From assembly GCF_025200925.1 (NCBI RefSeq), contig NZ_CP104174.1, positions 2,728,001-2,792,000 of the forward strand: a DNA stretch of 64,000 nt, in the 5' to 3' direction. Made by a program: the position numbers and the translations under genes. The notes beneath the pieces were generated by a model. The model had not been told where the DNA came from. It ran no database searches and saw nothing but the letters and a program-made list of their open reading frames with translations. Shown here one piece after another: positions 2,950-56,871 of the stretch; within the stretch, counting starts at the first letter, position 1, and every line of letters starts with the position of its first letter. This DNA is from Bradyrhizobium sp. CB1015 (GTDB taxonomy: Bacteria; Pseudomonadota; Alphaproteobacteria; Rhizobiales; Xanthobacteraceae).

Positions 2950-3954
2950 TCATTGCTGTCGATGTTCACTAATTCGCTGATTGGATCGCGGTGGTCTTGG
3001 TAGCGGCGAAGGCCTTGGGGTTTGTCCTGCCAAGGCCTGATGGGGTCTGTGGTTGTTGTAGTAAACGAGGTACTCGAACAGTTCATTGGCGAAGTGGTCG
3101 AGGTTGTCGAAGGTCGCGCCGTCGATGACGTCGTCATCGAGGGTGCGCCAGAAGCGTTCGACCTTACCGTTGGTCTGCGGCCGATAGGGCCGGGTGTAGC
3201 GGTGTTTGATGCCGAGCTCGAGCAGCATGGCCTCGAACGGATGCTCGCCCGGCTTGGTGCGGGCGGCGAACTCGGCGCCGTTGTCGGACAGGATTTCCTG
3301 GAAGACGAGCCCATAGGTGACGTTGAGGGTGTTGATCATCTTCAGGGTCTTGAACATGACCGGCAGCGCCTTCTTGGATGTCAGGACCTCTGCCCAGGCC
3401 AGACGCGTGCAGCTGTCGATCAAGCTGATGATGTAGGCCGTGACCGGGGGTGGCGCGAGGAACATATCGCGCGGCAATTGATGCAGATCGACGTGGCCCA
3501 GCTCTCCGAGCTTGTCCTTGATAATACGGCGTTTCTCCTCACGCATCGCCGGCGTGCGGCGGTTCAGGCGGTAGCGTTTCAGCACCCGGTAGATCGTGAT
3601 CGGCGAAGGTACCGTGTCGCGCGTTTCGCGCAAGACGGCATGAATCTCATAACGGTTCATCCCCCGCTTGCGATGGGCGACAATCTCCGTCTCGATCCCT
3701 TCCGGCTCGCGTCGCTCCCGCCACTTCGGGCCGCGCCGCCGCGGCAGCAGATCCGCTTCCTCGCCGCTCTGCAGATAGCGATTGTAATACTTGCGGAACG
3801 TCTGCGAGCAGGTCCCGTGGTGCCGGTAGAAGTCGCCGACCCGCTTGAACAGCGGCGATCGGCCAGCCTTCACCGCCTCATACTCCGAAATCAGAAAACG
3901 CCACTTCTGCAGATAGTTGCGTTCAACCGTTCGGTCATAGCTGTTGTCTCGCAT
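2950..3954 (-). CDS. IS481-family transposase (DDE/rve integrase core)
   Basis: The 334-residue protein has an N-terminal helix-turn-helix region, then the integrase core: GELGHVDLHQLP with the first Asp, LSDNGAEF with the second, and TNGKVERFWRTL with the Glu, followed by the family's YYNNHRPHQAL tail. The start chosen is ATG at 3952-3954 (MRDNSYDRT), inside the element; the frame stays open to 4125 through flanking DNA but that part translates a palindromic repeat. The stop TGA at 2950-2952 lies outside the left IS end at 2957, so the last two or three codons and the stop come from the target repeat. Confidence 0.9.
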   Translation of the reverse strand: MRDNSYDRTVERNYLQKWRFLISEYEAVKAGRSPLFKRVGDFYRHHGTCSQTFRKYYNRYLQSGEEADLLPRRRGPKWRERREPEGIETEIVAHRKRGMNRYEIHAVLRETRDTVPSPITIYRVLKRYRLNRRTPAMREEKRRIIKDKLGELGHVDLHQLPRDMFLAPPPVTAYIISLIDSCTRLAWAEVLTSKKALPVMFKTLKMINTLNVTYGLVFQEILSDNGAEFAARTKPGEHPFEAMLLELGIKHRYTRPYRPQTNGKVERFWRTLDDDVIDGATFDNLDHFANELFEYLVYYNNHRPHQALAGQTPRPSPLPRPPRSNQRISEHRQQ

Positions 3955-4007
3955 CGGATCGTTCCTCCGCTGGAGCGATCCAATCAGCGAATTAGTGAAC
4001 ATGCACA
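2957..4007. mobile_element. IS481-family insertion sequence, 1051 bp, with 33-bp inverted repeats and ATTGC target duplication
   Basis: The ends read TGT...ACA. The terminal inverted repeats are 2957-2989 and 3975-4007, 33 bp each with only two differences (CG versus GC at positions 4-5). The 5-bp direct repeat ATTGC flanks them at 2952-2956 and 4008-4012. Removing the element and one ATTGC restores CGTCATTGCGAGGAGCG, the outer arm of a palindromic repeat also found intact at 7725 and 9380 in this window. One transposase gene fills the element, with no sign of decay. Confidence 0.9.
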
Positions 4008-4090
4008 ATTGCGAGGAGCGCTTGCGACGAAGCAATCCAGACCGCCTCCGGGGCTGCAGTCTGGATTGCTTCGCTTCGCTCGCAATGACG
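4008..4090. repeat. Palindromic repeat, class 1 (split by the IS481 element)
   Basis: This is the larger part of a REP-like palindrome whose outer arms read CGTCATTGCGAG and CTCGCAATGACG, with an inner AGCAATCCAG / CTGGATTGCT pair. The first nine bases of the left arm are on the other side of the IS at 2948-2956. Intact relatives are at 7725-7811 and 9380-9465. It lies between pqq/DUF6894 and the amidase. Confidence 0.85.
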
Positions 4091-4165
4091 GAGGTACCCC
4101 CGCGAAATCCGCATGGCTTTGCCACGTTCCCGGCGCTAAAAGACGCCGGTCATTCGGAGCAAGCC

Positions 4166-41148: not shown

Positions 41149-43053
41149 TTGATCGATCACCGCAGCGATCTTCGGAAAGGGCGTCTGACGCTCTGGGCCT
41201 CCGCATTCGTGGCGGTCGCTTGCTTGGCGATTGTCGCGCTCAGCGGCTGGCGGGAGTGGTCCTCGCGACAGACGCTGCTGAAGGGCTCCGAAACAGACAT
41301 GGCCAATCTGGCCCGGTCGGTGACGCAACACGCGGACGATACGTTCGAACTCGCGGACACCGTTCTCAATGTGTTGGTCGGCCAACTCGAACTCGAGGGA
41401 AGCAGCCCGGCCGCGATCGCCAAGATTCAGACCTTTCTTTCCCGGCGCAAAGCCGCGAACCGGATTCGCGCTGTGTTCGTCTATGACGAGACCGGCCGCT
41501 GGCTCGCGACCAGCGAGCCCGTGGATTTCGCCGGCCTCAACAACAGCGACCGCGAGTATTTCCAGCATCATCGCGCCGTGGCTGAGCGAGGAACCTTCAT
41601 TGGGGGTCCAGTGAGGAGCAGGTCGGGGGGCCAATGGATCATCACAGCGTCAAGGCGCTTCGATCATCCTGACGGCAGTTTTGCCGGAGTGGCTCTTACC
41701 ACGATCGATGTCGACTATTTTTTACAATTCTATCGCGGATTCGACGTTGGCCAGAATGGCTCAATTGCACTGGCGACCGCGAAAGGCGTTGTCCTCGCGC
41801 GTAGCCCGGACAACGGATATACGGGCCGCGATCTGTCGAATGCACCGCTTTTTAGGAATTTCCGCGAGCGGCCAGCTGCGGACGTTTACTACTTCACGTC
41901 GCCTCTCGACGGCGTTCGGCGTCTGAGTTTTTATCAACTCAGCAGTCGCTACCCTGTTGTCGTGGTTGCGACGGAATCGGAAGACGACGTCTTGGCCCCC
42001 TGGCGCAGAGCGGCGCTGACGCGCGTAGCTGCGGTGCTGGGACTGATAGGAGGGCTCGCTATTGCGGGGGTTTTGCTGGTGCGCCAGTTGCACATGCGGC
42101 AGAAGATGGCGGCTGCTCTGATCGCCAAGGAGGCGGATTTTCGTCTCCTCGCGGAGCAGTCGGGAGACATGGTCATGCGCATAGCGGTCGATGGACGGAT
42201 TCTCTATACGTCGCCGTCCAGCGCGCGAGTCCTCGGCTGGGCTCCGAACGAATTGGTGGATACGTCGGCCCTCGCCGGCATAAATCCGGCGGATCTGGCG
42301 CGGGTTGAGGAGACGATCTCCGCGTTGATGAACGGCGAAGCCGAGGAGGCAAGAATCACTTATCGCACTCGGCATCGCGAGAAAGGCGAGGTCTGGATCG
42401 AAACCGCGCTGCGCGTCGCCAGGAGTGCGCAGAGTGGAGACATCGACGGCGTGGTGGCGATCTCGCGCGACATGACCGAACGTAAGGACCTGGAACATAA
42501 GCTGGCGGCTCTCGCCAGTTCGGATGGCCTGACGGCCTTGGCAAACCGCAGACACTTCGACGAGCGGCTAGAAGCGGAATGGGACCGGGCCAGGCGCGAA
42601 GGAACGCCTCTGTCACTTTTGCTGATGGATGTCGATCATTTCAAGAGTTTCAATGATCAGTACGGGCATCAGGCGGGCGATGCATGTCTCCGCTCGGTCG
42701 CCGGGGTCCTGGCGGAGCAGGCCAGGCGGCCGGCAGACTTGGCCGCTCGGTATGGTGGTGAGGAATTCGCCTTGCTGCTGCCAAATACCGACACGGGAGG
42801 GTGCGAGCAGGTCGGCGAGCGAATCCGGCAAGCGATTCAAGACCTCGGCATCCTGCACGCGCTCAATCCGCCATCCAAGCAGGTCACCCTCAGTATTGGT
42901 GGCGCCACACATATGTCGTTCGGCGATAAGGCTGATTGCACGTCGTTGATAGCGGCTGCGGACAAGGCGCTCTACGCCGCCAAGGAGAGCGGGCGCAACC
43001 GCCTTGTGATGTCAGGGCAAGTCATCGCGTGGCCCAGCGCGATACGAGCTTGA
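41149..43053 (+). CDS. Membrane diguanylate cyclase: periplasmic Cache-like sensor, PAS, GGDEF
   Basis: The 634 residues run: membrane helix (about 13-31), a periplasmic double-Cache-like sensor (about 32-285, with DREYFQHHR and QWIITASRRF as usual), a second helix (LIGGLAIAGVLLV), a PAS domain, and a GGDEF domain with catalytic RYGGEEF. An inhibitory I-site RPAD stands five residues before it, so the enzyme should make c-di-GMP under product control. The TTG start at 41149 has AGGGAG upstream. Placed 173 bases after the PilZ glycosyltransferase, it is a likely local supplier of the activator. Confidence 0.92.
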   Translation: MIDHRSDLRKGRLTLWASAFVAVACLAIVALSGWREWSSRQTLLKGSETDMANLARSVTQHADDTFELADTVLNVLVGQLELEGSSPAAIAKIQTFLSRRKAANRIRAVFVYDETGRWLATSEPVDFAGLNNSDREYFQHHRAVAERGTFIGGPVRSRSGGQWIITASRRFDHPDGSFAGVALTTIDVDYFLQFYRGFDVGQNGSIALATAKGVVLARSPDNGYTGRDLSNAPLFRNFRERPAADVYYFTSPLDGVRRLSFYQLSSRYPVVVVATESEDDVLAPWRRAALTRVAAVLGLIGGLAIAGVLLVRQLHMRQKMAAALIAKEADFRLLAEQSGDMVMRIAVDGRILYTSPSSARVLGWAPNELVDTSALAGINPADLARVEETISALMNGEAEEARITYRTRHREKGEVWIETALRVARSAQSGDIDGVVAISRDMTERKDLEHKLAALASSDGLTALANRRHFDERLEAEWDRARREGTPLSLLLMDVDHFKSFNDQYGHQAGDACLRSVAGVLAEQARRPADLAARYGGEEFALLLPNTDTGGCEQVGERIRQAIQDLGILHALNPPSKQVTLSIGGATHMSFGDKADCTSLIAAADKALYAAKESGRNRLVMSGQVIAWPSAIRA

Positions 43054-43062
43054 AGAGCAGCT

Positions 43063-43165
43063 CTAAAGCGCGATGCGATTAGGATGAATCGTCATCGCGC
43101 TTTAGGTTGTTGTTTGAGCATGATCTTTTCGGAAAACCGCTACACACTTTTCCGGATCATGCTCT
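43063..43165. repeat. Double-hairpin intergenic repeat, class 5
   Basis: Two hairpins in tandem: CTAAAGCGCGATG...CATCGCGCTTTAG (43063-43104) and GAGCATGATC...GATCATGCTC (43116-43165). The same pair occurs in opposite orientation at 50423-50510. It directly precedes the orphan phaZ fragment. Confidence 0.8.
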
Positions 43166-43188
43166 AGTGCGCCGCGGCGTGACCCTCT

Positions 43189-43261
43189 CGAATTCACGTG
43201 CACGAAATCGCGCAGCAGCGGATAGATCTCGTTGTTCCAGCGCTTGCCGGAGAACACGCCG
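43189..43261 (-). pseudogene. Orphan 3' end of phaZ (left copy of the 73-bp direct repeat)
   Basis: These 73 bases are identical to 45214-45286, the last 24 codons of the PHB depolymerase gene, in the same orientation. Beyond 43261 the two diverge at once. On the other side some similarity continues for about ten bases with a 2-bp deletion (TCTCGAATTC here, TCTCACGAATTC there) which removes the phaZ stop codon. It is not expressed as a protein in any obvious way. It is best seen as the old 3' end of phaZ left behind by an insertion. Confidence 0.85.
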
Positions 43262-43401
43262 GCGCTGCGGTCCGCGGGCTGATGACCGGGCTGGGTCTGG
43301 TTGCCGTTCCCTTCGGGTAGCGTACAAGATCGGATTGTACTATAAGTAGTGCAGAAGATTGCTGACGGCGTCAATTCAATACTCGTGACAGAATTTCAAC
43401 G

Positions 43402-43674
43402 GTGGGTGAGATGTGGCACGGCGTGACTCCGGTTTCATCGATGCATGATCCAATCCTGTACGAAAGCCCTGAGCGTAAGGATGTGCTCGTGGCAAACGCG
43501 GGGCCGGGCACGATCTTGGCCAGAGCCTGGTCAACTCCCCAAGGTGAAGGAATGCCCAGCAGTCAAATCGAGCTTCGGCCAGGAGATCAACGGGTCCTGT
43601 CTGGCTGTCTCATTCGTGCCAAGCATAAACCGCCAGGCGATCTCGCTGCCGTTGCATGGAGGGTTCTTCAATAG
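43402..43674 (+). CDS. Small unknown protein upstream of the metallophosphoesterase
   Basis: A 90-residue protein (or 87 from ATG 43411), with no signal peptide, helix bundle or membrane segment. The second half, VLVANAGPGTILARAW then QIELRPGDQRVLSGCLIRAK and AAVAWRVLQ, alternates hydrophobic and polar residues as a small beta-sandwich would. I do not recognise the family. It ends eight bases before the ATG of the next gene, with the ribosome site of that gene (AGGAGG) overlapping the interval, so the two are probably cotranscribed. Composition matches the cassette, not the host. Confidence 0.55.
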   Translation: MGEMWHGVTPVSSMHDPILYESPERKDVLVANAGPGTILARAWSTPQGEGMPSSQIELRPGDQRVLSGCLIRAKHKPPGDLAAVAWRVLQ

Positions 43675-43682
43675 GAGGACTT

Positions 43683-45170
43683 ATGAGCAAGTTTCCTCAA
43701 ATCCGCATACTGCATATCTCAGACATCCATTTCGGGGGCGACCATTTCTGTCGACATCCCGGGTCAGGGGCAAGCGCTGGAATTCCCAAGCTTTGGGAGC
43801 TGATAGCAAGCGATCTCGGCGGCATCGAGTGGAAGGAGTTCATATGGGCCAATCAAGCCGATTACGATGAACCTACTCGTTTGATCCTCGTCGTTTCGGG
43901 GGACTTGGCTCACACCGCCGATCCAAGAGAATTCCAGAGTGCGTACGAGTTTATCGAAAATCTGATCAGAAACCCCATACTGGGTACGAAGGTTGCGCTT
44001 CAAGACGTTTTCGTCGTGCCCGGAAACCACGATGTCGTATTCAATCAAAGCGATCCTGAACATCGCTTTCTCCCCTATTGCAATTTTTACAACAAGCTTT
44101 TCCGAGGGATTTCCGAGGCTCGGCCAGTTGTTCACGCCGATCAGGCCGACAAGCTCACGCAGGTTCGCGCGTTTCCAAACGACCGCCTGCTCGTGGCCGA
44201 GATAAACTCGAGCTACTATGTAGAGAAGGATACCTTTGACGAGAGCAGGGGGCAGGTCGACTACAAGGCCATCGCTTCGTTGAGACGCGGCTTAGAGCGA
44301 GTGGCTTCAGAGACTCCAGATTCCAAGGAGTGGCTGAAGGTTGGGGTTGTTCACCATCATCCTGTTCTCTTGCCGTCTTTCATTGAGGCAGGCAGAGATA
44401 TTGACGCGATCCTCAACGCGGGATCGCTCTTGACACTCCTTCGTGAGCATGGCTTCCAACTCGTTCTTCACGGTCACAAGCATTTCCCGCAGGTGTTTTC
44501 GTACGATCCCGATCCGGCATGGACGGCGCCTGACACACCAACCCCCAGACCGCAGTTAATCGTCGCAGGCGGTGCCGCTGGTAGCAAGACGCTGCCTCAG
44601 GCGGGGTTGAGGTCCAACACCTACAATCTGATCACAATAAAGTGGAATCCCGGGGCGCTGCAATCCAGGGTGCAAATTGTCACGCGCGGTTTGAATAGAT
44701 GGGGTCCGGCGGGAGAGCTGGATCCGGATCAATGGAATTGGCGTACCCTTCGCGTCTACGACAAGGTCATGTCCCCCTACGACAGTTTGCCGCTCCCTAC
44801 CCAATCTCGCCGTGTCGATTTTCCCGTGCCACCCGACGAGCTCGAAGCGAGGCGAAAGAAAGAATACGAACGGCTCAGATGCAACATGCCTGTTGTAGAA
44901 GTACTGCCGTCCCTGATGCCCGGACAAGGATACGAAGCCCGTGCTTGGATCGTGCCGCATCCGGGTCATAACACTTTTCCAAAGGAAGTATTGTGGTCGG
45001 CGGGCCCGAAATTCAAACGACAGATATCGAGCGCGGACGCATCGTCTAACTTCTGCGTCTCCTTCCACTATTGGGGACCCATGCAGATTCAGGCCGAGCT
45101 GATATTCGAAGACAGGGCCGAAACCACCTACCTGTATGCGCGGCTGCCGGATGCAATCACCCGTCGATGA
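43683..45170 (+). CDS. Calcineurin-like metallophosphoesterase with an unassigned C-terminal beta domain
   Basis: The 495 residues start with a complete two-metal phosphoesterase domain: DIH at 14-16, GD at 73-74, GNHD at 114-117, HH in VVHHHPVL near 224, and GHKH at 264-267. No residue is missing. After about residue 300 comes a linker and then a domain at about 400-490 (YEARAWIVPHPGH, EVLWSAGPKFKRQI, SFHYWGPMQIQAELIFED) that resembles a small beta-sandwich, perhaps of the prokaryotic YEATS type. ATG 43683 follows AGGAGG. Substrate may be a nucleotide, nucleic acid or protein phosphate; cassette context suggests an accessory rather than housekeeping role. Confidence 0.85.
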   Translation: MSKFPQIRILHISDIHFGGDHFCRHPGSGASAGIPKLWELIASDLGGIEWKEFIWANQADYDEPTRLILVVSGDLAHTADPREFQSAYEFIENLIRNPILGTKVALQDVFVVPGNHDVVFNQSDPEHRFLPYCNFYNKLFRGISEARPVVHADQADKLTQVRAFPNDRLLVAEINSSYYVEKDTFDESRGQVDYKAIASLRRGLERVASETPDSKEWLKVGVVHHHPVLLPSFIEAGRDIDAILNAGSLLTLLREHGFQLVLHGHKHFPQVFSYDPDPAWTAPDTPTPRPQLIVAGGAAGSKTLPQAGLRSNTYNLITIKWNPGALQSRVQIVTRGLNRWGPAGELDPDQWNWRTLRVYDKVMSPYDSLPLPTQSRRVDFPVPPDELEARRKKEYERLRCNMPVVEVLPSLMPGQGYEARAWIVPHPGHNTFPKEVLWSAGPKFKRQISSADASSNFCVSFHYWGPMQIQAELIFEDRAETTYLYARLPDAITRR

Positions 45171-45210
45171 AACGCCTCCGCCGGAATCGCCTGAGCCCCA
45201 CTTGCCCGTC

Positions 45211-46434
45211 TCACGAATTCACGTGCACGAAATCGCGCAGCAGCGGATAGATCTCGTTGTTCCAGCGCTTGCCGGAGAACACGCCGTAATGGCCGACGCC
45301 GGCCTGCATGTGGTGGACGCGGCGATAGGCGCGCACGCCGGTGCAGAGGTCCTGCGCGGCCAGCGTCTGGCCGATCGAGCAGATGTCGTCCTTCTCGCCT
45401 TCGACCGTCATCAGGCCCATGCGGCTGACCGCCCTGGTGTTCACGGGACGGCCGCGATGCATCAGCTTGCCTTGCGGCAGGAGGTGCTCCTGGAACACGT
45501 CGCGCACGGTCTCGATGTAGAACTCGGCCGGCAGATCCATCACGGCGAAATATTCGTCGTAGAACGTCTTGATGGTCGCGGCTTTCTCCTTCTCGCCCTT
45601 GGCGATGTGGTTGGCGAGGTCGAGATGCTGCTTGATGTGGCGCTCGAGATTCATCGAGACGAAGGCGGTGAGCTGCACGAAGCCGGGATAGACCTTGCGC
45701 AAGGCGCCGCGGCACTGCATCGGCACGTAATTGATCAAATTGCGCTCGAACCATTCGATCGGCTTGCTCTTGGCGAACTCGTTGACCCTGGTCGGCTGGA
45801 TCCGCGTGTCGATCGGGCCGGCCATCAGCGTCAGCGTCGCCGGGCGCGAGGGATGGTTGTCCTCGCACATGATCGCGGCGGCCGCGAGTGCGGAGACGGA
45901 CGGCTGGCAGATCGCCACCATGTGCGGGCGCGGCCCGAGCTGTCCGAGGAAATCGATCAGGTGCTCGGTGTAATCGTCGAGCCCGAAGCGGCCCTCGCTG
46001 CGCGGGATGTCGCGCGGATTGTGCCAGTCGGTGATGTAGACGTCGTGGTCCTGCAGCAGCGTCTTCACGGTGCCGCGCAGGAGCGTCGCGAAGTGGCCGG
46101 ACATCGGCGCCACCAGCAGCATGCGCGGCTGCTCGCCGACGCCCTCTTTCTTGAAGTGCAGCAGCGAGCCGAACGGCGTCGCGTAGGCGATCTCCTCGCT
46201 GACGGCGACCTCGCGGTTGCCCACCATGACGCTGTCGATGCCGTAGGCGGGACGGTCGTAGGTGAGGGTGGAGCGCGAGATCAGCTCCAGCGCGGCCGAC
46301 AGCCGGCCGACCACCTGGTCCGATAGGCCCTGAGGCACCAGGTGGAGGAATTTGAGCGCGGACGAAGCCCCCGCGCGCCATGGCGCCGTCAGGTCCATGT
46401 GGTTCTGAAAAGCCTGATAATACATCGACATCAT
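45211..46434 (-). CDS. phaZ: Intracellular PHB depolymerase
   Basis: The 407-residue protein matches the intracellular polyhydroxybutyrate depolymerase family, which mobilises stored PHB granules. It begins MMSMYYQAFQNHMDLTAPWR, lacks a signal peptide, and has a Cys in the nucleophile elbow (Cys176 in AICQPSVSA) in place of Ser, as in the Ralstonia PhaZ1 type. Asp and His of the triad are likely in VEGEKDDIC and GVGHYGVFSG. Start ATG 46432-46434. The last 24 codons exist twice in the window; this copy is intact. No phaC, phaA or phaB is adjacent. Confidence 0.93.
   Translation of the reverse strand: MMSMYYQAFQNHMDLTAPWRAGASSALKFLHLVPQGLSDQVVGRLSAALELISRSTLTYDRPAYGIDSVMVGNREVAVSEEIAYATPFGSLLHFKKEGVGEQPRMLLVAPMSGHFATLLRGTVKTLLQDHDVYITDWHNPRDIPRSEGRFGLDDYTEHLIDFLGQLGPRPHMVAICQPSVSALAAAAIMCEDNHPSRPATLTLMAGPIDTRIQPTRVNEFAKSKPIEWFERNLINYVPMQCRGALRKVYPGFVQLTAFVSMNLERHIKQHLDLANHIAKGEKEKAATIKTFYDEYFAVMDLPAEFYIETVRDVFQEHLLPQGKLMHRGRPVNTRAVSRMGLMTVEGEKDDICSIGQTLAAQDLCTGVRAYRRVHHMQAGVGHYGVFSGKRWNNEIYPLLRDFVHVNS
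45214..45286 (-). repeat. Right copy of the 73-bp direct repeat (functional phaZ 3' end)
   Basis: Identical to 43189-43261. Here it is the in-frame end of phaZ (the residues before and including HVNS), followed by TGA at 45211-45213. Confidence 0.9.
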
Positions 46435-54124: not shown

Positions 54125-55510
54125 TTGCCCGTCGAGGCTGGGCAAGAATTGGTCGTTGGCGGGCTCATGCCGGAACGAAGCGGCCGATTTGGAGCGGCGG
54201 TCGGATATTGGTCCAGAGAGGCTCTGGAGCAACCAGGATGTGCTGGAGGAGGGCTGCGAAGATACATTGGCAAACAGCAAGCCTCTTTGCGAGGGCAGCC
54301 AGAAACCCGTCAAATCCAAGGATGTTGAGCGCACGGGTGAAATTGTAGCAGAGCGCCATCAGGCTCCATTCGCCGCGGACCTTGTCGAAGCCGCGGACCA
54401 GGAAATGACGATAGCCGGCACGGCATTTGAGCGTGCCAAACGGATGCTCGACAATCCCCGAACGACGACGCATCAGCTCGCCCGCACCCTGCATCCGTGC
54501 GCGGTGGCGTTCGAGAACATCTTCATGCTCCCAGCGACCAATGGTCCGGTAGGTGGTGGTCGGTGAGAGACAGCGGACCTTGAGCGGGCAGCTCCTGCAG
54601 ATTGCTACACGGGCCGCGTAACGGATCTCAATGCGGCCGCTGGTGTTCTTTTGCCTGCTCTTGAACGGATGCAGCGGCTGGCCCGCAGGACAACGGTAGG
54701 TGTCGGTTGCACCATCATAGTTGAAGTCCTTGAGCGCAAAGCGGCCTTGCTTCTCGAGCCGCGCGCTACCTTCGGGCAGCGGTACATAGGCAATGATACC
54801 CTCGTCCTCGCAGGCCTTCAGTTCGACACTGCTGTAATAGCCCTCATCGGCCAGCGCCTGCAGTGTCTCGGCTCCAAGAGCCTTTTTGGCCGCCTTGGCC
54901 ATCGCAGAGAGCTGTCGAACATCACTGCTGTCGTTGACTACCTCACTCGCGACAATGAGCTTGTGCTTGTCATCAACCGCGGTCTGCACATTGTAGCCTG
55001 CAATGCCCTGACCATTCTTGACCAGAAGCCGGGCGTCCGGATCCGTCAGCGACATTTGCGTCTCGCCACTCTCTTCCAGCCGAGCCAGATCGGCCTCGGC
55101 ACGTGAACGCTTCGCCATCAGCGCCGCGACCTTCGCAGCGATATCACCGCCATCTCCTCGACCATCACCGTCCGCGCGATCCTTCCCCGGCTTCTTGGCC
55201 TCTGCCGCATCATTGTCTTCAACAGACTTGCGGTAAGCCTCGATCTCCTGGTCCAGCCTCGCGATCTGCTCGCCAAGCCGCTTGCGCGTAAAGATGGAAG
55301 CCTTGCTGGCGTCGCCGTGGAACAGGGAACCATCAATCGCTACGATCGTGCCGCCCACAAGCCCAAGCTCCCGAGCCAGCAGCACGAAGCTGCGGTTCGC
55401 GGCCTTCAGCGCCTTCCAGTTCTCCTTGCGGAAGTTGGCAATCGTCCGATAACCCGGCTTCAGTCCCTTCAGCAGCCAGATCAGCTCCAGATTGCGGCCA
55501 GATTCCCGCT

Positions 55511-56466
55511 CTAGCTGTGGAGCCTCAAGAGGTTGTCCTCGGTTAGACCGAGCCTGCTGATCGGCGTTTGAGATCTTATCCCGCCGTGGGGGCGATGCCA
55601 GTTGTATCGATGGAGCCAACGGGGCAACTCCTCGGCGCGGCGGTCGGAGGTGGGATAGGCTTGCGCATAGGCCCACTCCCTGAGCGCGGTCTGGATGAAG
55701 CGTTCGGCCTTGCCATTGGTTTTGGGCGTATAAGGCCTGGTTCGCTTGTGCTTGAGGCCGAGCTCCTGGCAGGCGTCGCGGAAGTCGAAGGCTTTGTAAC
55801 AACTGCCGTTATCGGTCATGACCCGGGTGACGGTGACGCCGAGGCCTTTGTAATAATCAATGGCCGCTTTGAGGAAGGCTACGGCGCTCTCGGCTTTTTC
55901 ATCGGGCAAGATCTGGGAGAAGGCGACGCGGGAGTGATCGTCAATGCAGACGTGGACGAATTCCCAGCCGACCCTCGGTTGTTGCTCTGACCGGTGCGAT
56001 CGCCGGTGATGCGGTGGCCGATCTTGTCGAAGCGGCCGAGCTTTTTGATGTCGATGTGGATCATCTCGCCCGGCGTTTCGCGCTCATAGCGGCGCACCGG
56101 CTCGGCCGGCTCCAGGTCGCGTATCCGGTTCAGTCCCAAACGACGCAGAATGCGGCTCACAGTGGCCGTCGATATCTTGAGTTCGACCGCGATCTGCTTG
56201 CCGGTGTGGCGCTGGCGCCGCAAGACCTCAACAGCGGTGCATGTGGCAGGCTCTGTTTGGCTCGGCAGTGAATGAGGTCGTGACGAGCGGTCGCGCAAGC
56301 CATCAACGCCTTCCATGCGGAAACGGCCGACCCATTTGGCAACCGTTTTCGGCGTCGTATTGAACTGGCGCGCCGCGGCTGCTTTGGACAGGCCGAAATC
56401 CACGACGGCACGAACCATCGCCTCTCGACCTTTCGGTGTCAGGGGAGCATTCTTGTGGGTGTCCAT
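55511..56466 (-). pseudogene. IS481-family transposase with a one-base frameshift
   Basis: The gene starts MDTHKNAPLTPKGREAM (ATG 56464-56466), with HTH domains (LSKAAAARQFNTTPKTVAKW and KISTATVSRILRRLGL), then the first catalytic Asp in MIHIDIKKLGRF. A base is missing in the C run 55972-55974 (a G run on the coding strand), after which the frame switches; the rest continues as DNGSCYKAF with the second Asp and TNGKAERFIQ with the Glu. The stop TAG at 55511-55513 lies in the CTAG of the target duplication, outside the element. Probably inactive. Confidence 0.85.
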
Positions 56467-56548
56467 TCGGTTCTCCGCGAATCGCTGTGGTTTGGCGACT
56501 TCAGAGTTCCCGGTCAGGGCCGAATGGACAACCTCCTGAAAGACCACA
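55516..56548. mobile_element. Nested IS481-family insertion sequence, 1033 bp, TCTAGC target duplication
   Basis: Ends are TGTGG...CCACA, with imperfect inverted repeats of about 23 bp sharing TGTGG and GAGGTTGTCC. The 6-bp direct repeat TCTAGC flanks it at 55510-55515 and 56549-56554. CTAG-containing targets are typical of many IS481-family members. It is unlike the IS481 element at 2957, which has a different end sequence and a 5-bp duplication. Confidence 0.9.
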
Positions 56549-56871
56549 TCTAGCCGTCGCGACGACCTGACCTGGTTGATGTAGCCGTAAAGATAGAGCT
56601 TCAGCAGATCGGCAGGATCATACGGCGGCTGCCCGACTTCTTCCGCGCCACGATCCGCGTGGCCGAAACCAAGCTTTGCAAGGTCGAGCGCGCAAACGAA
56701 GCTCTCGATCGCCCGCACCGGATTGTCCGGCCCGACATAGTCCTCAATCCGCGCAGGCAGAAGACTGGGTTGCTCCCGGCTCTCGCCGGTCTTGAATGTG
56801 CGATTCGCCATAAGACGAATCCTACATCAACTCTCAAAAAACGACGTTCTTGCCCAGCCTCGTCGGGCAAA

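What the first reader, a model, noticed from the sequence alone, without database searches (positions are those of the whole stretch)
43189..45286. A 2-kb low-GC cassette sits between 73-bp direct repeats made from the 3' end of phaZ
Seen: 43189-43261 and 45214-45286 are identical over 73 bp in the same orientation; the right copy is the true end of phaZ, the left an orphan. Between them is DNA of clearly lower GC with two plus-strand genes. Known: integrating elements that target gene 3' ends carry a copy of that end, so the gene is restored on one side and a fragment is left on the other. Inference: this is such an integration, but phaZ is not a tRNA and no integrase is inside, so it would be either moved in trans, a remnant, or a new kind of small mobile defence or accessory cassette.
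Basis: partly seen in the sequence, partly recalled or inferred. Interest (0 to 1): 0.82.

Follow-up and report, generated by a model that had tools for sequence, protein, structure and literature searches.

The report
Integrase-free gene cassette beside phaZ
In this Bradyrhizobium chromosome a two-gene, possibly antiviral cassette sits just behind a storage-polymer gene, next to a leftover scrap of that gene, and related genomes suggest that such inserts arrive there repeatedly by ordinary DNA recombination rather than by a dedicated mobile-element enzyme.

Summary
In detail: 43185-43261 repeats 45210-45286 (76 of 77 bases, 73 in a row). Between lie a small jelly-roll-like gene and a metallophosphoesterase-pYEATS gene. 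G143 and G261 have empty sites, so this is an insertion; the left copy is the recipient's old phaZ end, its stop codon mutated. The phaZ 3' side is a one-sided hotspot: 13 flank classes in 30 genomes, against 1 upstream and 1-2 at three control genes. Twelve of 82 examined loci hold phaZ 3' remnants of 43-275 bp, three with a second one, with unlike inner junctions; no tyrosine integrase was listed at the loci of 14 genomes (listing cut). This fits one homologous crossover in phaZ plus one illegitimate joint, not a fixed attachment site. Bradyrhizobium sp. DOA9 has the same cassette there, with a homologous right junction, another left flank and 1.4-3.7 times the synonymous divergence of six other genes, so acquisitions were probably separate. 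The cargo looks like defence: distant kin of the tested DS-9/DS-8 phosphoesterases, below family cut-off.

The parts
43185..43261 (-). Orphan phaZ 3'-end remnant (76/77 to the true end); old recipient copy, stop codon mutated TGA to AGA
   Evidence: repeat; aligned with the empty sites of G143 and G261
43262..43311 (+). About 50 bp of unassigned junction DNA, without a counterpart in the DOA9 cassette; weak likeness to the inside of an IS256-type transposase gene (family name recalled)
   Evidence: (best hit G210, 84% over 37 bp, E 3.2e-4 for one genome of 265); homology with DOA9 starts at 43312
43411..43674 (+). ORF1: 87-aa all-beta, jelly-roll/cupin-like small protein (alternative GTG start 43402); partner gene of ORF2
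   Evidence: homologs; same gene order in a Bacteroidales bin and Flavobacterium; model and fold search; dN .051, dS .316 to DOA9
43683..45170 (+). ORF2: 495-aa calcineurin-like metallophosphoesterase with C-terminal pYEATS domain; defence-like
   Evidence: PF00149 55.2 bits, PF20305 34.3 bits; distant DS-9/DS-8 antiphage phosphoesterase, below cut-off; active-site residues kept; dN .044, dS .398 to DOA9
45171..45210 (.). 40-bp junction between ORF2 and the phaZ stop; homologous in DOA9 (39 bp)
45211..46434 (-). phaZ, intracellular PHB depolymerase, intact; homology anchor of the hotspot
   Evidence: (flank classes)
41149..43053 (+). GGDEF (diguanylate cyclase) gene = original downstream neighbour of phaZ before the insertion (still so in G143, G261)

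Best explanation
A foreign two-gene cassette was inserted at the 3' end of phaZ by the cell's own recombination: one homologous crossover inside phaZ and one illegitimate joint. Most likely a fragment carrying the last ~76 bp of a donor phaZ plus the cassette was circularised by end joining and integrated by a single crossover in the phaZ end; homology-facilitated illegitimate recombination (HFIR) with the joint inside phaZ would give a similar product. The crossover keeps phaZ whole on the cassette side; the recipient's own last 76 bp stay behind with its old neighbour, now useless (its stop codon has mutated). Donor-recipient homology ends at the phaZ stop codon, which would explain why joints gather there and why the site is reused. 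Older remnants are displaced outward (G189) or travel in with the donor fragment (G003, G014). Shown: insertion, empty sites, variable remnants, unlike inner junctions, one-sided flank variability, no tyrosine integrase listed. Inferred: circularisation and crossover, the vehicle (transduction, conjugation or transformation), and the cargo's role. The cargo is most likely a small anti-phage module: a phosphoesterase effector with a pYEATS sensor and a jelly-roll partner that binds a ligand or restrains it.
For: Empty sites with the same left flank in G143 and G261. Flank classes in 30 genomes: 1 upstream and 13 downstream of phaZ; in the same 30 genomes three control genes of the window give 1 class on each side, except 24+1 of 25 on one side (n 25-30 per side). 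Remnants reaching the phaZ stop (G260: to within 2 bp) in 12 of 82 loci at E<=1e-4 (72 of those 82 were fetched because one search showed a second match), and in 5 of 30 genomes ranked only by PhaZ similarity. Lengths 43-275 bp at that threshold, 22-42 bp for weaker ones, with extra inside pieces in G014 and G160. Two remnants in a row in G003, G014, G189. In 7 of 10 remnants some other genome's phaZ end is closer than the own intact one (G160 by one base, G003 by two, the rest by 3-10), against in-place duplication. Inner sides are unlike donor DNA: end of the ABC-transporter gene (G014, G189), end of a cyclase-like gene (G003), TetR gene (G045); overlaps at the joint of 1 bp (G003), 4 bp (G189), about 4 bp (G160) and 11-12 bp (G014). 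In G003 the 308 bp before the outer remnant match a G045-like remnant plus cyclase end, in G014 a G189-like remnant plus transporter end: the donors were other versions of this same locus. G000 and DOA9 share a homologous right junction but not the left one. Precedent (PMC3240628, section 12 read): 56 of 60 E. coli integrants carried a partial duplication of the homologous gene end (109-950 bp in 14 sequenced), put down to single crossover of a circular molecule lacking part of the end, probably trimmed and recircularised; 4 of 60 appeared to be HFIR.
Against: For G000 itself the remnant ties with its own phaZ end, DOA9 and G262 (75 of 76 each), so donor and recipient copies cannot be told apart; G249 and the outer remnant of G003 also match their own phaZ best or equally. 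The cassette differs by 11% from DOA9's while phaZ next to it differs by 0.6% over the last 170 bp; a sharp step at the stop codon is also what a site-specific insertion would give (the single-crossover model allows it, a long donor tract does not). 73 bp is short homology for a crossover. The source of 43262-43311 is not established, so no joint can be read for G000; inner sides are also unplaced in G021, G035, G249, G260. Only tyrosine integrases were searched for, in 14 genomes, with 200 matches of which the listing shows a part. Five weak matches to inner parts of phaZ (G036, G053, G056, G090, G153; 65-82% over 38-75 bp) and a scrambled set in G075 lack the 3' end. 25 of 30 unselected genomes show no remnant, so most flank changes left none. 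The flanks also hold 23 other repeat pairs in 16 genomes, so partial duplications are not unique to phaZ. Defence by this cassette is inferred from distant kin only.
Confidence: 0.64

Rival explanations
1. A site-specific integrase, acting in trans or since lost, inserts elements into an attB at the phaZ 3' end; the repeats are attL/attR.
For: Recurrent use of one gene end, same orientation, phaZ restored, homologous right junction in G000 and DOA9, sharp divergence step at the stop codon.
Against: Remnants 22-275 bp with pieces from far inside phaZ; unlike inner junctions; no shared sequence beyond the stop seen by eye between loci of different flank class; no PF00589 match listed at the phaZ loci of 14 genomes (listing cut; the nearest is about 20 kb away on the other side of phaZ in G194); 14 cargo proteins of six loci scanned with Pfam show no recombinase or transposase domain; DOA9 carries the cassette without a clear repeat.
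Confidence: 0.13
2. The whole arrangement (remnant plus cassette) was formed in another strain and reached this one by double homologous recombination in flanking core genes, as proposed for hotspots without mobile elements (PMC5635113, passages seen).
For: Hotspot beside conserved genes with high turnover; such exchange needs only flanking homology.
Against: It cannot create the partial phaZ duplication in the first place; none of the loci held has the same left junction; among the 30 best PhaZ matches the two with the same neighbour directly beside phaZ (G143, G261) are empty, and G003, with the same GGDEF gene by eye, has another insert.
Confidence: 0.12
3. In-place tandem duplication of the phaZ end, with the cassette inserted later between the copies.
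For: For G000 the two copies are identical over 73 bp, and its own phaZ is a joint best match of the remnant.
Against: In 7 of 10 remnants the own intact phaZ is not the best match; G143 and G261 have one copy; remnants stand with cargo in between in 12 of 82 loci.
Confidence: 0.05

Closest known systems
Single-crossover / homology-facilitated illegitimate recombination products in E. coli conjugation (PMC3240628; passages and section 12 seen)
   Same: Insert flanked by a partial duplication of the homologous gene end, of variable length; one homologous and one illegitimate joint.
   Different: There a laboratory event at lacZ; here natural, repeated at one gene across a genus, with two remnants in a row at three loci.
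Sequential displacement of T6SS effector modules and orphan immunity arrays in Vibrio cholerae (PMC5361080; passages seen)
   Same: Incoming module anchored on a conserved stretch, older gene ends kept as a record of past events; HFIR proposed by the authors.
   Different: There the leftovers are immunity genes; here they are dead phaZ ends, and the anchor gene is unrelated to the cargo.
Hotspots without mobile elements (PMC5635113) and core defence hotspots of Pseudomonas aeruginosa (PMC10250203); passages seen
   Same: Fixed chromosomal spot beside conserved genes, cargo turnover, defence genes among the cargo.
   Different: Those papers explain transfer by recombination in the conserved flanking genes, which would leave no scar; here the border gene phaZ leaves remnants.
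DS-9 / DS-8 anti-phage metallophosphatases (PMC13092281; passages seen)
   Same: Metallophosphoesterase core, E 8e-33 to the DS-9A model.
   Different: Far below the equivalog cut-off (114 of 420 bits); partner is a small all-beta protein, not a HAD phosphatase; a pYEATS domain is present.

Membership tests
Integrase-driven genomic island / integrative element at a gene 3' end | Gene end duplicated and gene restored on one side; empty site in relatives | tested here: met
Integrase-driven genomic island / integrative element at a gene 3' end | Integrase gene in the element or locus | tested here: not met
   ORF1 and ORF2 are no integrase; no PF00589 match listed at the phaZ loci of 14 genomes (200 matches, listing cut); serine recombinases not searched
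Integrase-driven genomic island / integrative element at a gene 3' end | Fixed att core length and conserved arms | tested here: not met
Integrase-driven genomic island / integrative element at a gene 3' end | Excised circle | not testable with these tools
   needs junction PCR
One homologous plus one illegitimate joint (SCO / HFIR) | Partial duplication of the anchor gene of variable length | tested here: met
One homologous plus one illegitimate joint (SCO / HFIR) | Second joint with no or short homology | tested here: inconclusive
   overlaps of 1 to 12 bp in four other loci; not determinable for G000 itself
One homologous plus one illegitimate joint (SCO / HFIR) | RecA dependence | not testable with these tools
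   needs experiment
HGT hotspot without mobile elements | One spot beside conserved genes with high cargo turnover | tested here: met
HGT hotspot without mobile elements | Raised homologous recombination in the flanking core genes | not tested
   only sliding identity was looked at
DS-9 anti-phage system | Equivalog score of DS-9A | tested here: not met
   114 bits against cut-off 420
DS-9 anti-phage system | HAD-phosphatase partner gene | tested here: not met
   the neighbour ORF1 has no Pfam match and a small all-beta model
DS-9 anti-phage system | Intact metallophosphoesterase active site | tested here: met
   G73 D74, G114 H116 D117, H224-H226, G264 H265 K266 H267 invariant in 21 sequences; D14, H16 and N115 nearly so (motif roles recalled)
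DS-9 anti-phage system | Protection against phage | not testable with these tools
   needs plaque assay
Insertion sequence / composite transposon | Terminal inverted repeats and transposase | tested here: not met
   no transposase inside; the only inverted pair near the two ends (I4, 25 nt, 76%) lies 170 bp inside the left end

The most novel reading that the evidence does not exclude
The phaZ remnants are portable homology arms: recombination between the remnant and the intact phaZ end can excise any cargo as a circle with one phaZ end, which can re-enter phaZ of another strain through RecA alone, making an integrase-free, self-perpetuating gene-cassette system that spreads small defence modules through Bradyrhizobium.
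Probability: 0.12. Interest if true: 0.78.

Novelty: new variant of a known kind. Interest (0 to 1): 0.52.

Why it matters
Many gene-acquisition hotspots lack mobile elements and how they fill is debated. Here dead gene ends mark some of the events, so number, order and joints of natural insertions can be read from sequence and tested in the laboratory. The site also offers untested defence candidates, among them a phosphoesterase-pYEATS plus small all-beta protein pair found in Bradyrhizobium and in Bacteroidota.

Tried and rejected
Plasmid DNA: 186 records matched but none over 80% of the query; the 20 listed rows cover only query positions 60-180, the dispersed repeat. As protein, ORF2 has one full-length plasmid relative (Rhizobium, 35%) and one partial one (Nostoc, 23%), and one partial 26% phage match; five viral contigs carry only distant partial relatives. 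The source of 43262-43311 was sought in 265 genomes without a convincing answer. Promoter/terminator scan gave nothing above shuffles. Rfam gave only sub-threshold matches, on the dispersed repeat. PADLOC gave only weak hits for ORF2, none for ORF1. No solved structure is related to ORF2 by sequence. No paper in the library holds the word pYEATS; a search for two of Bradyrhizobium / insertion hotspot / phaZ found 45 papers, and the 8 listed do not describe this hotspot by title and start of abstract; searches gave nothing used. An in-place duplication was considered and disfavoured. I first read the repeats as an att pair; variable remnant lengths and inner pieces turned me from it. I also first took the outer of two remnants to be always the older; this fits G189 only, while in G003 and G014 the inner one came with the donor.
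Full report
What is there. The repeat is real: 43185-43261 against 45210-45286, 76 of 77 bases, 73 in an unbroken run. The right copy ends phaZ; the single mismatch turns the phaZ stop codon of the left copy into a sense codon. The DNA between has GC 0.556, clearly below the phaZ side and less clearly below the left side, and two genes.

The site before insertion. In G143 and G261 the GGDEF gene left of the left copy (window 41588 to 43072 or 43064, 98% and 97% identical) is followed directly by a single phaZ end. So the left copy and everything left of it is the original downstream side of phaZ, and 43262-45210 is inserted, with phaZ now ending on the cassette side. G003 has, by eye, the same GGDEF gene behind a different 9.9-kb insert. 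Compared with the empty sites the window also carries a ~105-bp dispersed repeat between the GGDEF gene and the left copy (43064-43168; 39 further near-full copies listed in the genome, where 40 of 162 candidates were scored), with CTCTA on both sides.

The same cassette elsewhere. Of 265 genomes, 106 have some match to ORF2, mostly short and generic; two have it at 90% or more, G000 and G114, and the next best is 38% (G067). In G114 it also follows phaZ, with a homologous 39-bp junction, but its left neighbour is an oligopeptide ABC transporter by eye, and G119 is the matching empty site. Synonymous divergence between the two cassettes is 0.40 (ORF2) and 0.32 (ORF1), against 0.11 for phaZ, 0.11 for the GST-like gene, 0.16, 0.15 and 0.16 for moxR-like, sseA and pqqB, and 0.23 for the ABC transporter; dN/dS is about 0.11 and 0.16, so both genes are kept by selection. 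The cassettes are thus 1.4-3.7 times more diverged than these six genes, which argues for separate acquisitions, though the transporter comes fairly near. A third carrier is suggested by a B. yuanmingense protein (P0001, 91%), whose context I could not see.

The site is a one-sided hotspot. In 30 genomes ranked only by PhaZ similarity, the 1.5 kb upstream of phaZ fall in one class and the 1.5 kb downstream in 13 (15, 2, 2, 2 and nine singletons). In the same genomes three control genes of the window (moxR-like, sseA, pqqB) give one class on each side, except 24+1 for one side of one gene (25-30 flanks long enough per side). The distance from phaZ to pqqB varies from 21 to 48 kb in the 25 genomes with both on one contig; from phaZ to the moxR-like gene it varies from 6.8 to 12.5 kb in 24 of 25, the exception being G143 with 52 kb.

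Remnants. With the last 80 bp of phaZ as query, 83 of 265 genomes show two or more matches (my count from the table; at most three candidates per genome were scored); in most fetched loci the second match was not nearby. I fetched up to 20 kb downstream of phaZ for 72 of the other 82 and for 8 with one match (some flanks were cut by contig ends, the shortest at 0.8 kb). Ten flagged genomes (G067, G080, G101, G102, G200, G222, G225, G236, G246, G247) were not fetched. Among these 80 plus G114 and G000, 12 of 82 have a same-strand piece reaching the phaZ stop (G260: to within 2 bp) at E<=1e-4: G000 76 bp, G003 95 and 102, G014 69, G019 44, G035 275, G045 111, G160 154, G189 163, G194 43, G216 44, G249 117, G260 103. 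Weaker ones: G021 22 bp, a second in G014 (38-42 bp) and in G189 (42 bp), and 26 bp at 77% in G114. G019, G194, G216 and the outer one of G189 share the sequence beside them and are probably one old event. G014 and G160 also hold pieces from 460-505 and 791-910 bp upstream of the stop, and G075 a scrambled set of inner pieces with no 3' end; five further weak inner matches (G036, G053, G056, G090, G153) may be chance. In the 30 genomes ranked only by PhaZ, 5 have a remnant and 25 none.

What joins to the remnants. The sequence just inside differs: the end of the ABC transporter gene in G189 and G014, of a cyclase-like gene in G003, a TetR gene in G045; in G000, G021, G035, G249 and G260 it is unplaced. 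Where both parents are recognisable the overlap at the joint is 4 bp (G189), about 4 bp (G160), 1 bp (G003) and 11-12 bp (G014). In G003 the stretch before the outer remnant matches G045's remnant plus cyclase end (310 columns, 91%), and in G014 it matches G189's old remnant plus transporter end (260 columns, 86%). So in these two the inner remnant came along with a donor fragment from another version of the same locus, and the outer one is the fresh joint; in G189 the outer one is the old one. In 7 of 10 remnants some other genome's phaZ end is closer to the remnant than the own intact phaZ, in G160 by one base only; not so in G000, G249 and the outer one of G003. A self-comparison of the 82 loci finds 10 pairs with phaZ and 23 others in 16 genomes, several of which are these junction pieces.

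Mechanism. A fixed attachment site does not fit lengths from 22 to 275 bp, inner phaZ pieces, unlike inner junctions, or the lack of a listed PF00589 match at the phaZ loci of 14 genomes (200 matches, listing cut). One homologous crossover in phaZ and one illegitimate joint do fit. In E. coli, 56 of 60 such integrants carried a partial duplication of the homologous gene end (109-950 bp in 14 sequenced), which the authors put down to single crossover of a circular molecule lacking part of that end, and 4 of 60 appeared to be HFIR (PMC3240628). The single-crossover route also explains why phaZ of G000 and DOA9 stays 99.4% alike over its last 170 bp while the cassette beyond is 89% alike: no more than the last 76 bp of phaZ need be foreign. 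The layered leftovers resemble the orphan immunity arrays of Vibrio cholerae, for which something akin to HFIR was proposed (PMC5361080). For G000 alone the data cannot separate single crossover from HFIR, nor exclude that the arrangement came ready-made.

Cargo. ORF2 has a calcineurin-like phosphoesterase domain (55.2 bits) and a C-terminal pYEATS domain (34.3 bits), with active-site residues conserved in 21 aligned sequences, two of which are N-terminally short (motif roles recalled). It matches the DS-9A antiphage phosphoesterase model at E 8e-33 but with 114 of the 420 bits required; five distant relatives behave alike. DS-8 and DS-9 protect E. coli and lose this when predicted catalytic residues of the metallophosphatase are mutated (PMC13092281, passages). 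In a Cyanobacteriota bin the relative sits beside SIR2-like and Mrr-like genes. ORF1 has homologs of 55-76% among six database proteins and lies directly before ORF2 also in a Bacteroidales bin and in Flavobacterium; it was not seen (frames of 70 aa or more) in four other relatives (L072, L159, L161, L162). Its model is confident in three of five runs (best pLDDT 94.8) and all-beta. The fold search gives no match at E<=0.001; the best are an insecticidal PirA protein (E 0.007), spore-appendage proteins and cupin or CRP-type barrels, so 'jelly-roll-like' is a loose label. Other cargo at the site includes an AbiJ_NTD3/Abi_C gene (G035), a TIR-nSTAND1-FGE gene (G160) and a HicA-like gene below cut-off (G249), but also metabolic and regulatory genes (G045, G189; G003, G014 by eye) and unplaced ones (G260). 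Anti-phage action is therefore likely but untested.

Verdict. The site is a natural, repeatedly used recombination hotspot that keeps a partial fossil record.

Noticed in passing
window 43064-43168: A ~105-bp dispersed repeat, 39 further near-full copies at 89-99% listed in the own genome (40 of 162 candidates scored), with CTCTA on both sides and absent from the empty sites G143 and G261; weak sub-threshold Rfam likeness to two Brucella sRNA families.
   Followed up: partly
L161:3488-6859: Cyanobacteriota bin: Mrr-like endonuclease, SIR2-like gene and metallophosphoesterase in a row, a possible defence operon.
   Followed up: partly
L162:7980-9999 and L072:4123-6139: Distant ORF2 relatives in Devosia and G067 are each followed by a small gene with no Pfam match, perhaps deoxyribosyltransferase-like by eye.
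   Followed up: no
L112:964-6622: G160 cargo: TIR-nSTAND1-FGE-sulfatase protein overlapping the end of a convergent 920-aa frame with no Pfam match.
   Followed up: no
L136:2150-4344: G249 cargo, GC 0.544: HicA-like gene plus two proteins without any Pfam match, flanked by a 117-bp phaZ remnant.
   Followed up: partly
L093 (G075), about 5.9 kb downstream of phaZ: Scrambled inner phaZ pieces, one inverted, without the 3' end.
   Followed up: no
G143, upstream side of phaZ: 52 kb between phaZ and the moxR-like gene against 6.8-12.5 kb in 24 other genomes, suggesting a large insertion.
   Followed up: no
window 2950-4125 and 54165-56811: Open reading frames that look like insertion-sequence transposases by eye.
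   Followed up: no
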